Shown here one piece after another: positions 51,778-57,209 of a stretch of DNA of 64,000 nt. Numbering within the stretch: the stretch's first letter is position 1; the number at the start of each line of letters is the position of its first letter. The DNA is taken from NCBI RefSeq assembly GCF_010730575.1, contig NZ_AP022614.1, positions 4,588,001 to 4,652,000 of the forward strand, given 5' to 3'. The DNA comes from Mycobacterium parmense. GTDB lineage: Bacteria; Actinomycetota; Actinomycetes; Mycobacteriales; Mycobacteriaceae. The notes below the pieces were generated by a model, which saw nothing but the letters and a program-made list of their open reading frames with translations, made no database searches and was not told the origin of the DNA. A program made the position numbers and the translations under genes.

Positions 51778-52503
51778 TCAGTCCAACTCCCATACGGCGG
51801 TGACCGAGAAGCTCACGGTCTGCTGGCCGGGCTCGAGCGGGACGGCGCTCGGCATGGCCCTGGGCGCCGGCAGCACGGGCGCCGCATTGGCGGGCGCCTC
51901 GGAGATGGCGAGGATCTTGCCCAGCCGCAGCCCGGACAGCTGCGCGTACTGGTCGGCCCGGCCCTTGGCGTCGTCGAACGCCCGCGCCCGGGCGTCCTTC
52001 ACCAGCTGCGAGTCGTCGGCGATCGAGTAGCTGACCGAGCTGATGCGGGTGGCGTCGCCGCCGGTGCCGACGATCAGGGCCAGCAGCCGCGACGCCGCCT
52101 CGGGCGGGTGGATCTTCACCTCGATGGAGTTGGCGGCCCGGTAACCGGTGATGGCCGGCGTTTCGTTCGGCCCGGGATTGCCGTACTGCGGCTGCAGCGT
52201 GACCTCGGTGGTTCGGATGTCCTTGCGGTCGACGCCCGCGCCGAGGAGCGCGTTGATGACGGCCTGCTGGCGGTCGTTGGTCCGGTTCATCGCGGTCGTG
52301 ACGTCCGGCGCGGTGAACTCGACGGCCACGTCGGCGGTCAGCGTGTCCGGGACGCCCTGCACCTGCCCCGAACCCACCACGGTCACCTGTCGCGGACTCG
52401 CGGTGTCCTCCTCGGATCCACAGCCGGCCACCGTCGCGACGGCCAAACCCGCGGCGGCCCAGGCGATCGTCCTGCGGTAGGCCGGCACACTGAGTTTCGG
52501 CAT
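51778..52503 (-). CDS. lpqG: SIMPL-domain lipoprotein LpqG
   Basis: Exported lipoprotein of 241 residues (240 in M. tuberculosis LpqG). The signal peptide ends in VAGC with lipidated C28. A SIMPL/DUF541 domain follows: VTVVGSGQVQGVPDTLTADVAVEF, then ITGYRAANSIEVKI and ISSVSYSIADDSQLVKDARARAFDDAKGRADQYAQLSGL. Related proteins bind periplasmic partners or protect against stress; its own function is unknown. It starts at ATG 52503; the repeat array begins about 40 bp upstream, so its promoter is either between the two or inside the array. Confidence 0.9.
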   Translation of the reverse strand: MPKLSVPAYRRTIAWAAAGLAVATVAGCGSEEDTASPRQVTVVGSGQVQGVPDTLTADVAVEFTAPDVTTAMNRTNDRQQAVINALLGAGVDRKDIRTTEVTLQPQYGNPGPNETPAITGYRAANSIEVKIHPPEAASRLLALIVGTGGDATRISSVSYSIADDSQLVKDARARAFDDAKGRADQYAQLSGLRLGKILAISEAPANAAPVLPAPRAMPSAVPLEPGQQTVSFSVTAVWELD

Positions 52504-52540: not shown

Positions 52541-53090
52541 GGGGCGGCCGGGGAGCACACGCGACGCCCTGGGTGCACACGCGACGGCCGGGGAGCGCAC
52601 TCATCGCCCAGGGTGCACATTCAGCGCCCTGGCAGCACACTCACCGGCCGGGTTGCACACTCAACGCCCACGCAGCACATGCGCCGGCCGGGGCTTCGGT
52701 TGTGCGCTCACGGTTTTGAGTGTGCGTGTAGGGCGGTGTTCGTCGGCGTGTCGCCGCCCTGGGTGCACACTCAACGCCCACGCTGCACACTCAACGCCCT
52801 GGCAGCACACTCAACCCCCACGCAGCACACTCAACGCCCACGCTGCACACTCAACGCCCTGGCAGCACACTCAACGCCCACGCAGCACACGCGCCGGCCG
52901 GGGCTTCGGTTGTGCGCTCACGGTTTTGAGTGTGCGTGTAGGGCGGTGTTCGGCGGCGTGTCGCCGCCCTGGGTGCACACGCGACGCCCTGGGTGCACAC
53001 GCGACGCCCTGGGTGCACACTCGACGCCCACGCTGCACACTCAACGCCCACGCTGCACACCCGACGCCCACGCTGCACACTCAACGCGGT
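52541..53090. repeat. 20-bp tandem repeats in a 210-bp higher-order array
   Basis: A core GCACACTCAACGCC recurs every 20 bp. Core starts fall at 52555 to 52675 (7 units), 52765 to 52885 (7 units) and 52975 to 53075 (6 units). The blocks are separated by two 70-bp inserts, making a 210-bp super-period. The consensus unit is CGCTGCACACTCAACGCCCA, with variants GGGTGCACACGCGACGCCCT and GGCAGCACAC. Each insert carries the core in inverted form (TTGAGTGTGC at 52716-52725 and 52926-52935). The 100-bp segments 52671-52770 and 52881-52980 differ at only two positions. The array fills nearly all of the 721-bp gap between lpqG and the dehydrogenase gene. No protein or RNA gene is evident in it. Confidence 0.95.
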
Positions 53091-53224: not shown

Positions 53225-54238
53225 CTAGGGCGTGACGAGAATCTTGCAGTGCCGCTCGGGGTCGGCGAGGTCGTCAAAGGCCTCGCCGACCCCGTCCAGT
53301 CCCACCTCCCCGGTGATCACCGGGGTGACGTCGATCTGCCCCTCGGCCAGGGCGCGCAGCGAGTCGGTGAACTCGTCGGGCGTGTAGGCCAGCACGAACT
53401 GGACGTTGATCTCCTTGGCAATCGCGAAGAACGGGTGCACGGTGTCGGGTTGCATGCACACCCCGGCGACCACCAGGCGGGTGCCCGGCCGGGCCCGCAG
53501 CAGCACGTCGTCGATGATCCCCGGGACGCCGACCGCCTCGAACACCACTGCGGGTTTGACGGTGTCGAACGGCGAGCCCTGCGCCGCGTCCAGCGTCTGA
53601 TGGGCGCCCATCGCGGTAGCCAACTCCCGACGTTTCGGCGAGAAATCCGATGCCACAATCGTTTCCACACCGCGGGCCCGCAACGCCGCGACGATCGCGA
53701 TGCCGATGGGGCCGCAGCCCAGCACCAGCGCCGTCTCGCCCGTCGCGATGTTCGACTTGTTGACGGCGTGCAACCCGACGGCTATCGGTTCGGTAAGGGC
53801 CGCGTGCCTGAGGTCGAGCCCGTTGGGAATCGGCAGCAGCAGCGGCGCCGACAGCAGCATCCGCTCGGCGTAGCCGCCGATGGTGTGGTTGCTGTACACG
53901 ATCGGCTCGACCCCCTTGGCGGACAACAGCACCGGCAGCGAGGTGACCAGGGTCCCCGGCGGGTGGGTCTCGGTGTCCGGCCCGGCCTCGAGCACCTCGG
54001 CGCTGAATTCGTGGCCCATGAAGACGTCGTGCTCCAGGTCGACGCGCATGGCGCCCGCGCCGCCGGCCACCCGGTCGCTCATTTCCAGCACCTGGGCGCC
54101 GTGTGCGGCGAAATGCAGGTCCGAACCGCAGATTCCACACGCCCGCACGGCGACCAGCACCTGCCCGGCCTCGGGTACCGGCTCGGGCACGTCGTCCCGA
54201 TACACCATGCGGCCGTCCCGCAGGACCGCGGCGCGCAT
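53225..54238 (-). CDS. Zinc-type medium-chain alcohol dehydrogenase
   Basis: NAD(P)-dependent dehydrogenase of 337 residues from ATG 54238. The catalytic-zinc cysteine and the histidine/glutamate pair are in RACGICGSDLHF and FMGHEFSAEV. The Rossmann motif is VLGCGPIGIAIV. The four-cysteine structural zinc lobe of classical alcohol dehydrogenases is absent (no cysteines between GHEF and LPVLLSA), as in several bacterial MDR enzymes. It is last in an operon with ephA and the luciferase-like monooxygenase; its start shares one base with the monooxygenase stop. The function may be oxidation of diols or alcohols made from the same substrate. H37Rv has no dehydrogenase at this spot. Confidence 0.88.
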   Translation of the reverse strand: MRAAVLRDGRMVYRDDVPEPVPEAGQVLVAVRACGICGSDLHFAAHGAQVLEMSDRVAGGAGAMRVDLEHDVFMGHEFSAEVLEAGPDTETHPPGTLVTSLPVLLSAKGVEPIVYSNHTIGGYAERMLLSAPLLLPIPNGLDLRHAALTEPIAVGLHAVNKSNIATGETALVLGCGPIGIAIVAALRARGVETIVASDFSPKRRELATAMGAHQTLDAAQGSPFDTVKPAVVFEAVGVPGIIDDVLLRARPGTRLVVAGVCMQPDTVHPFFAIAKEINVQFVLAYTPDEFTDSLRALAEGQIDVTPVITGEVGLDGVGEAFDDLADPERHCKILVTP

Positions 54239-55428
54239 CAGCGACCCCCCTCGGTTTCGGCCACATGCTCGGTGATGGCTTTGACGACGGCCTCCCCGGC
54301 GCGACCGATCAGCTGGTCCCGCCTGCCCTTCGCCCACTCGTGCGACGAGCGCGAGGCCTGCAGCTGGCCCTTGAAATGCGGAATCACCTTGCGCGCCATC
54401 AGGTCGTAGCAGCGGTAGGTCGCCTCGGGGGACGCCCAGTCGTGGCCCAGCATCAGCAGCGTGCCAAATCCGCCCGAACGCTCCAGCAGGTCCTCGATGT
54501 GGGCGATCGCCTCGTCAGGCGTGCCGATGCAGCAATTTCCTTTGGCCGCGTAGTCTTCGACGAAATCGTGCGGTGTCTGGGCGGCGCCGTCGACGGCGTT
54601 GGACAGCGGGACGAATCCGGCCGCACCGAAGTAATTGGCGAAATCCTGCAGCCCGTAGGTGCAGTCGTCGATCGCGCGCTCGCGGGTGTCCGCGACGTGC
54701 ATGATGCTCAGTACCCGCCAGTTCGCCCGGTCCGGCTCGTCGCGACCGGCTTTGGCGGCCTGTTCGCGCACTACGTCCCACGTGGTCTCCAGCGCGGCAT
54801 ACCCGCCGGGCACCGACATGGACAGCGACAGCAGCGACGTACCCAGGGCACCCGCGAGCCGCGGGCCGGACGGGGAAATCATTGCCGCGGTGGAGATCTC
54901 GGGATACGGCCAGGTGTAGGGGCGGATGTGCAACTGCGCGTCGCGCAGCGTGAACCAGTCGGAGTGGCGGTCGATGCGCTCGGACGGCGCGGCGCGCAGC
55001 AGAGCGAGGATGGCCTCCAGGGATTCCTGCATCATCCGCCGCTGCTCGACCGGGTCGATGCCCATCATGTAGGCGTCCGACGGCAGCGCGCCGGGGCCCG
55101 TGCCGAACATCACGCGGCCGCGGGTCAGGTGGTCGAGCAGCACCCAGCGATCGGCCACCATCAGCGGGTGGTGATACGGCAGCGAGACCACCCCGGTGCC
55201 CAGTCGAATGTGCTTGGTTCGCTCCGCGGCCGCCGCGATGAACACCTCGGGGCAGGCGATCAGCTCGTAACCGCCGGAGTGATGTTCACCGAACCAGGCT
55301 TCGTCGAACCCCAGGCGATCCAGTGCGACGACACGTTCCATGTCGTATTCCAGCGCCACAGTGGGGGATTGGCCGGTCGGGTGAAACGGGGTGATGAAGA
55401 CGCCGAAGCGCAGGGGTGCGACCGTCAC
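54238..55428 (-). CDS. Luciferase-like monooxygenase (Rv3618-like)
   Basis: A TIM-barrel flavin-dependent oxidoreductase of 396 residues, matching the predicted monooxygenase Rv3618 (395) next to ephA. Landmarks are RFGVFITPFHPTGQSP at the start, LDRLGFDEAWFGEHHSGGYE, the loop IRLGTGVVSLPYHHPLMVADRW and VMFGTGPGALPSDAYMMG. The barrel could use FMN with a partner reductase, or F420. GTG 55428 overlaps the ephA stop by four bases (GTGA), so the pair is translationally coupled and may form and open an epoxide in sequence. Confidence 0.86.
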   Translation of the reverse strand: MTVAPLRFGVFITPFHPTGQSPTVALEYDMERVVALDRLGFDEAWFGEHHSGGYELIACPEVFIAAAAERTKHIRLGTGVVSLPYHHPLMVADRWVLLDHLTRGRVMFGTGPGALPSDAYMMGIDPVEQRRMMQESLEAILALLRAAPSERIDRHSDWFTLRDAQLHIRPYTWPYPEISTAAMISPSGPRLAGALGTSLLSLSMSVPGGYAALETTWDVVREQAAKAGRDEPDRANWRVLSIMHVADTRERAIDDCTYGLQDFANYFGAAGFVPLSNAVDGAAQTPHDFVEDYAAKGNCCIGTPDEAIAHIEDLLERSGGFGTLLMLGHDWASPEATYRCYDLMARKVIPHFKGQLQASRSSHEWAKGRRDQLIGRAGEAVVKAITEHVAETEGGR

Positions 55429-56920: not shown

Positions 56921-56975
56921 CCGCCCCGACGCCCGCGGGCCGCGGGGTGGGAACCGTGGGTCGTTGTAGAGGAGG

Positions 56976-57141
56976 ATGGCGGCAACCCGCTGCGCCCCGG
57001 CGCTGCCGGGGCTGGCGATTGCCGCGACAGCGATGGCGGCAACCCGCTGCGCCCCGGCGCTGCCGGGGCTGGCGATTGCCGCGACAGCGATGGCGGCAAC
57101 CCGCTGCGCCCCGGCGCTGCCGGGGCTGGCGATTGCCGCGA
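56976..57141 (+). repeat. 57-bp tandem repeat (VNTR), three copies, upstream of ftsH
   Basis: Copies begin at 56976, 57033 and 57090. The first two are identical and the third diverges after 51 bases. Each folds into a nested hairpin: outer stem GCGGCAA with TTGCCGC and inner stem CCCCGGC with GCCGGGG around GCT. As 57 is a multiple of 3, the units keep an open frame that repeats MAATRCAPALPGLAIAATA. It ends about 69 bp before ftsH, so it lies in the promoter or leader region of that essential gene. The form resembles MIRU-VNTR loci. Confidence 0.95.
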
Positions 57142-57209
57142 GCGGTAACCTGGACTTTTCGAGCTGCGTGTACATCGGGGAAGGACCTGGCCGCGAAGGC
57201 CGATGATTG

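What the first reader, a model, noticed from the sequence alone, without database searches (positions are those of the whole stretch)
52541..53090. Higher-order repeat array of 20-bp units upstream of lpqG
Twenty units at exact 20-bp spacing are grouped 7 + 7 + 6 by two near-identical 70-bp inserts, giving a 210-bp super-period. The inserts hold the core GCACACTCAA in inverted orientation beside a degraded direct copy, so each can fold. The exact phasing over about 540 bp, the two-mismatch match between the inserts and the lack of unique spacers show repeated block duplication rather than a CRISPR. 20 bp is close to two helical turns, so one face would display all cores, which suits cooperative binding of a regulator or nucleoid protein. 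I do not recognise the family.
Basis: seen in the sequence. Interest (0 to 1): 0.78.

Follow-up and report, generated by a model that had tools for sequence, protein, structure and literature searches.

The report
Hairpin-arm array of a nuclease-linked repeat
The odd array is a run of copied half-hairpins from a family of DNA hairpins scattered through mycobacterial genomes, and in many genomes matching hairpins sit on both sides of a gene for a predicted DNA-cutting protein, which suggests an undescribed kind of selfish DNA element.

Summary
The array is real: 20 units at 20-bp spacing in blocks of 7, 7 and 6, split by two 70-bp inserts matching at 69 of 70 bases. Each insert holds most of a 55-nt stem-loop; the 20-bp unit is that stem's arm. 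The genome has 18 such hairpins at 12 loci at the scores used; 105 of 148 genus genomes have matches. Arms covary, and 64 of 104 classified elements lie between convergent genes. The array's closest relative in the genome lies beside a DUF559 gene next to pknG. DUF559 genes have matching repeats in both flanks in 28 of 48 rows (16 of the 28 not picked by me), against 4 of 134 control genes, two of them DUF559 copies; outside the genus 11 of 20 against 1 of 13. The protein is predicted to join an AbiEi-type half to a Vsr/homing-endonuclease half. I read the array as tandem copies of the site of a nuclease-linked selfish element that works like REP/RAYT with another enzyme. Hairpin dispersal is visible; mobilisation by the nuclease is inferred, and two hairpin-rich genomes lack a cognate gene. 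No listed paper describes it.

The parts
52555..52694 (-). array block 1: seven 20-bp half-site units (read on the - strand: GAGTGTGC-like half-site, six variable bases, GGCG-like, two bases)
52695..52764 (-). 70-bp insert 1, holding most of hairpin 1 and its inverted half-site(s)
52718..52772 (-). hairpin element 1 (55 nt: 14-nt arm + GGCGG, 17-nt loop starting CGACACGCCG, CCGCC + 14-nt arm); model R1 score 76.6 bits
52765..52904 (-). array block 2: seven 20-bp units
52905..52974 (-). 70-bp insert 2 (69 of 70 identical to insert 1 in the register compared)
52928..52982 (-). hairpin element 2; model R1 score 70.2 bits
52975..53088 (-). array block 3: six units, the last incomplete
51778..52503 (-).
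53225..54241 (-). zinc-dependent alcohol dehydrogenase-like gene; its 3' end lies about 140 bp from the array

Best explanation
The array is a tandem amplification of the arm of a dispersed palindromic element. The element is a 55-nt stem-loop with a 19-bp stem; each 20-bp unit is one arm (GAGTGTGC n6 GGCG) plus two bases. These hairpins belong to a nuclease-linked selfish system seen in several actinomycete families: a gene of about 290 codons encoding an AbiEi-type half joined to a Vsr/homing-endonuclease half, often flanked on both sides by matched palindromes and mostly placed between convergent genes. Proposed mechanism (inferred): the AbiEi half binds the arm as a half-site, the nuclease half cuts in or near the hairpin, and repair copies the hairpin, or the hairpin-gene-hairpin unit, into the break. 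Hairpins persist where they do no harm, at gene 3' ends. Recombination between the two hairpins leaves a solo hairpin. Repeated cutting or replication slippage in the palindrome adds 20-bp arms in register, giving arrays such as this one, which is related to the array beside the nuclease gene at 3.62 Mb. Shown: the array, the dispersed family, arm covariation, 3'-end placement, the matched flanking repeats, the solo and empty sites, near-identical dispersed copies in one genome. Predicted: the domain folds. Inferred: binding, cutting, mobilisation and the cause of the arrays.
Confidence: 0.6

Rival explanations
1. The hairpins are bidirectional transcription terminators at convergent 3' ends. 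DUF559 genes merely carry terminators on both sides, and the arrays are neutral slippage products.
For: Strong 3'-end placement with no clear orientation bias in co-directional gaps (16 against 22); stable stem of hairpin 1; the same place kept in several species.
Against: Does not explain why the two flanking palindromes match each other yet differ between DUF559 clades, the near-identical dispersed copies in G129, or the shared loop. No T-run follows the window hairpins.
Confidence: 0.22
2. The palindromes and 20-bp arrays are operators: the AbiEi-type protein binds them to regulate itself and nearby genes, and no mobility is involved.
For: AbiEi and Rv2827c bind 23-bp inverted repeats in their own promoters (PMC7319586 passages); in the aligned units one palindrome lies upstream of the DUF559 start.
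Against: Hairpins sit at 3' ends and rarely between divergent genes (2 of 104); the second copy overlaps or follows the stop codon.
Confidence: 0.12
3. It is a neutral VNTR amplified by slippage and gene conversion, with chance proximity to DUF559 genes.
For: Phased units, block duplication and like sequence within each arm array.
Against: Flanking pairs in 28 of 48 DUF559 rows against 4 of 134 controls and 11 of 20 against 1 of 13 outside the genus.
Confidence: 0.06

Closest known systems
REP/RAYT (REPtron, BIME) systems (PMC2817692 abstract; PMC3733652 passages)
   Same: Extragenic palindromes at gene 3' ends; a dedicated enzyme gene flanked by two copies; tandem composites; repeat families that follow enzyme clades; more copies where the gene is present.
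   Different: No Y1_Tnp (PF01797) in this genome; a Vsr-like nuclease with an AbiEi-type half instead; no GTAG/CGTC end tag in the consensus; longer hairpins; at most 33 matches per genome in 148.
Vsr-like homing endonucleases such as I-Bth0305I
   Same: Nuclease-half fold; fixed-site occupancy with filled, solo and empty alleles.
   Different: A matched palindrome on both sides of the gene; AbiEi-type half; no intron or intein host was seen at the loci read.
AbiE type IV toxin-antitoxin antitoxin AbiEi / Rv2827c
   Same: Fold of residues 1-173 and PADLOC AbiEi models; AbiEi sites are 23-bp inverted repeats.
   Different: Fused nuclease; neighbours at the main site are acetate kinase and PknG, not a toxin gene.
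Myt-1, a stem-loop repeat family of M. tuberculosis (PMC2267715, passages)
   Same: Short (72 bp), structured, about 75 copies.
   Different: Its sequences lie in a supplement that could not be read; identity with this family is untested.

Membership tests
REP/RAYT | HUH tyrosine (Y1) transposase associated with the repeats | tested here: not met
   PF01797: 0 of 1 (own genome only); control rang in 5 of 14 genomes
REP/RAYT | GTAG or CGTC tag at one end of the palindrome | tested here: not met
   Not in the consensus of the 17-row alignment
REP/RAYT | enzyme gene flanked by two copies of the palindrome | tested here: met
   For a different enzyme: 28 of 48 rows, 14 of 17 places
REP/RAYT | usually more than 100 copies per genome | tested here: not met
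   18 here; at most 33 matches per genome in 148, some hairpins matched on both strands
homing endonuclease | homing-type nuclease fold | tested here: met
homing endonuclease | filled and empty alleles of a fixed site | tested here: met
   Acetate kinase-pknG: 40 of 70 filled; tight junctions 2 solo hairpin, 2 none
homing endonuclease | insertion interrupts the recognition site | tested here: inconclusive
   A whole palindrome lies on both sides in many units; the cut site is unknown
homing endonuclease | cleavage and homing | not testable with these tools
   Needs biochemistry
CRISPR array | unique spacers between repeats | tested here: not met
   Units abut in 20-bp steps; no CRISPR family over its gathering score in the 16 loci scanned
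AbiE toxin-antitoxin system | adjacent nucleotidyltransferase toxin gene | tested here: inconclusive
   Neighbours at the main site are acetate kinase and PknG; neighbours at other sites were not family-scanned
Myt-1 repeat family | sequence identity with Myt-1 | not testable with these tools
   Sequences lie in an unread supplement
intrinsic terminator | hairpin at a 3' end followed by a T-run | tested here: not met
   3'-end position met; no T-run beside the window hairpins as read. Termination itself is not testable here

The most novel reading that the evidence does not exclude
A family of selfish elements spread through actinomycetes in which an AbiEi-type half fused to a homing-type Vsr nuclease propagates, or once propagated, its own palindromic site, giving solo hairpins and phased half-site arrays: a counterpart of REP/RAYT with an unrelated enzyme.
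Probability: 0.45. Interest if true: 0.9.

Novelty: new variant of a known kind. Interest (0 to 1): 0.76.

Why it matters
Thousands of 'DUF559 domain' proteins are unexplained: 6877 and 4727 proteins (overlapping sets, each from a capped candidate list) scored in two searches. If they act on the palindromes beside them, a large unnamed protein family gains a substrate, many actinobacterial intergenic repeats gain a cause, and REP-like dispersal would have evolved with a second type of enzyme. The claim can be tested with one purified protein and a few oligonucleotides.

Tried and rejected
CRISPR: no spacers. RAYT/Y1 transposase: none in this genome. Rfam: in the 16 loci scanned only two tRNAs passed a gathering score. 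A lpqG-specific role: no hairpin match at the other 29 lpqG loci scanned. Strand-specific RNA function: no clear orientation bias in co-directional gaps (16 against 22). Loop type against the protein tree at the pknG site was only weakly clustered (5 and 6 of 500 shuffles as low, 17 rows, one very long branch) and is not used. Sequence search against the PDB gave TAL-repeat and other matches to residues about 114-174 that I take as composition effects. The model match at 3553250 (37.7 bits) was not examined, and one of the two matches near 160 kb was left out of the context count, which used 17 elements of this genome.

Selection, told plainly: the 17 rows of the first covariation test were picked by core string and by having both arms visible, so repeats the test on all 30 exact-core rows. 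Of the 50 DUF559 loci, 30 were chosen by the tool and 20 by me, nine of these because a hairpin was known nearby; two had no usable start, and L222 and L233 are the same gene (so 27 of 47 distinct genes). The 20 loci outside the genus were picked by open-frame size from the listed matches. Of 145 genomes with pknG, 70 were read at that site: the 30 best matches and 40 picked by me. In one search one contig-end genome was left out, and genomes without a listed match were taken as zero.

Literature: ten searches; several hold many more papers than the rows listed. Among the rows listed none links DUF559 to flanking hairpins, and the eight papers that hold one of six repeat strings have unrelated titles. 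Seen: listings for all; passages of PMC2267715, PMC7319586 and PMC3733652; abstract and outline of PMC2817692.

Full report
Observation. The array is as described: 20 units at exactly 20 bp in blocks of 7, 7 and 6 (half-sites 52555-52675, 52765-52885, 52975-53075), separated by two 70-bp inserts identical at 69 of 70 bases in the register compared. Twelve half-sites share one phase, against a maximum of 3 in 1000 shuffles. It lies between an alcohol-dehydrogenase-like gene and a SIMPL-domain gene, both on the - strand.

It is not a local curiosity. The exact core GCACACTCAA occurs 36 times in the 5,952,912-bp genome, and a DNA search finds related stretches at about a dozen places. Read side by side most show one anatomy: units in one orientation, a core GGCGGCGACACGCCG...CCGCC, then units in the opposite orientation. 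The core and its two innermost arms align without gaps as a 55-nt stem-loop: 14-nt arm, GGCGG, 17-nt loop beginning CGACACGCCG, CCGCC, 14-nt arm. The 20-bp unit is the arm plus GGCG plus two bases.

Structure. In 17 rows, picked by the core and by visible arms, 11 of 19 pairs show two-sided changes and the covariation score is 0.238, against 0.099 in shuffles and at most 0.116 in slid versions. Because that choice favours pairing, I repeated the count on all 30 distinct rows with the exact core in the genus loci, chance matches included: 64.0% of arm pairs form, against a mean of 54.0% and a maximum of 61.4% when right arms are exchanged between rows, and 57 cells change on both sides against a maximum of 52 (500 shuffles). 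In other species arms such as GAGTGTGA, GATTCTGC, GACACTTA and GAGACATA face largely complementary arms. Window hairpin 1 folds as ssDNA with z -4.5, hairpin 2 with z -2.8 and another best fold.

Distribution. Model R1 finds 18 hairpins at 12 loci here and matches in 105 of 148 genus genomes, up to 33 matches per genome, some hairpins being matched on both strands. Across the order 46 of 298 genomes match: 22 of the own genus, 3 of other genera of the family and 21 elsewhere, the last with E-values of 1e-7 or weaker.

Placement. With a codon-usage gene caller, 64 elements lie between convergent genes, 38 between co-directional and 2 between divergent genes; 2 lay inside a called gene and 4 could not be placed, of 110. 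Background gaps of at least 30 bp are 20 convergent, 71 co-directional and 30 divergent of 121 (p 8e-25 and 8e-11). Many elements are orthologous between species, so these p-values overstate independence; in this genome 8 of 12 loci are convergent (p 1.5e-4). Co-directional elements tend to lie nearer the 3' end and show no clear strand preference (16 against 22), which argues against a strand-specific RNA function.

The linked gene. In two genomes hairpins bracket a gene with DUF559/MTES_1575 nuclease domains. PF04480 matches 85 places in 21 of 22 genomes. Of 48 DUF559 rows with a usable frame, 28 have matching repeats in their two flanks at score >=30, against 4 of 134 control genes, two of which are themselves DUF559 copies. 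Twenty-eight of the 48 rows were chosen by the tool (16 pass) and 20 by me, nine of them because a hairpin was known nearby; L222 and L233 are one gene. By place, grouped by hand from neighbours, 14 of 17 contain at least one passing row. A stricter test on called genes gave 8 of 32 against 3 of 99. The repeats are palindromes whose sequence changes from clade to clade: GAGTGTGC, GAGACATAA, GCGAAAGTGCAAC, GCCGAGATTGCCG, GCGATTTCGGCGCGG and others; one copy usually lies within about 160 bp upstream of the start and the other within 30 bp of the stop codon. Outside the genus 11 of 20 small DUF559/MTES_1575 genes, picked by size, have such pairs against 1 of 13 controls, with unrelated palindromes and sometimes half-site arrays (L469, L483, L484). 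On the protein tree the CGACACGCCG loop is clustered (6 changes against 13.4 shuffled, 0 of 500), but each clade with several rows sits at one chromosomal place, so common descent explains much of this.

Filled, solo and empty sites. Between acetate kinase and pknG (family models), 40 of the 70 genomes read have the gene. Of the 30 without it, four are tight junctions: two hold one solo hairpin (L422, L487) and two hold none (L522, L523). L403 holds a hairpin and a remnant of the gene; eight have acetate kinase 0.5-1.2 kb away without a DUF559 match, one of them (L524) with a hairpin; in 17 no acetate kinase lies in the stretch read, which includes a contig end (L418). At another place the gene lies in opposite orientations in two species (L245, L246). 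In G129 near-identical hairpins sit at five loci, one 13 bp from a tRNA-Arg gene, and similarity ends close to the hairpin ends except between L183 and L186.

Link to the window. The nearest relative of the window array among the elements of this genome is the array beside the DUF559 gene at 3.62 Mb: 296 identical positions over a 362-bp alignment spanning two cores and their tails. The two-core layout is shared by both; which is the donor is unknown.

Correlation and counter-evidence. Genomes with the gene at the pknG site have a median of 9 hairpin matches (40 genomes) against 2 (29 genomes), p 5e-5, not corrected for kinship. Against a simple causal link: G141 has 17 matches but no PF04480 hit; G129 has 22 but a DUF559 gene with other arms; only 13 of 110 hairpins lie near such a gene; one hairpin pair brackets an unrelated gene (L161); the DUF559 gene of this genome at 3.62 Mb has R1 hairpins on one side only.

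Verdict. The array is best read as tandemly copied half-sites of a dispersed palindrome that belongs to an AbiEi-Vsr nuclease system; it works like REP/RAYT but fails its membership tests (no Y1 transposase, no GTAG/CGTC tag, lower copy number). Dispersal of hairpins is visible in the sequences; binding, cutting, mobilisation and the origin of the 20-bp arrays are inferred. None of the papers listed by the ten searches describes this association.

Noticed in passing
window 56975-57145: Three tandem 57-bp copies (100%, 100%, 95%) upstream of a long + strand gene at 57207 (ftsH by recall of its sequence); a possible VNTR.
   Followed up: no
L469, L483, L484 (other actinomycete genera): Half-site arrays (about 21-bp CGTTGACCGTGC units; repeated GTGATCATGCA units) beside small DUF559/MTES_1575 genes, recalling the window array.
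   Followed up: partly
L135, L182, L183, L185, L186 (G129): Near-identical hairpins with GAACGTGC-like arms at five loci, although the single PF04480 gene of that genome has different flanking arms.
   Followed up: partly
L133, L195, L196 (G088): Near-identical hairpins inside larger repeats: two copies share the left flank and two share the right flank.
   Followed up: no
L399-L428 (acetate kinase-pknG site): Hairpins with similar arms but at least two loop types (CGACACGCCG and GGGAAAATCGCCC) beside orthologous DUF559 genes.
   Followed up: partly
L161 (G140:C70): A pair of hairpins brackets a PIG-L-like gene (name recalled) rather than a nuclease gene.
   Followed up: no
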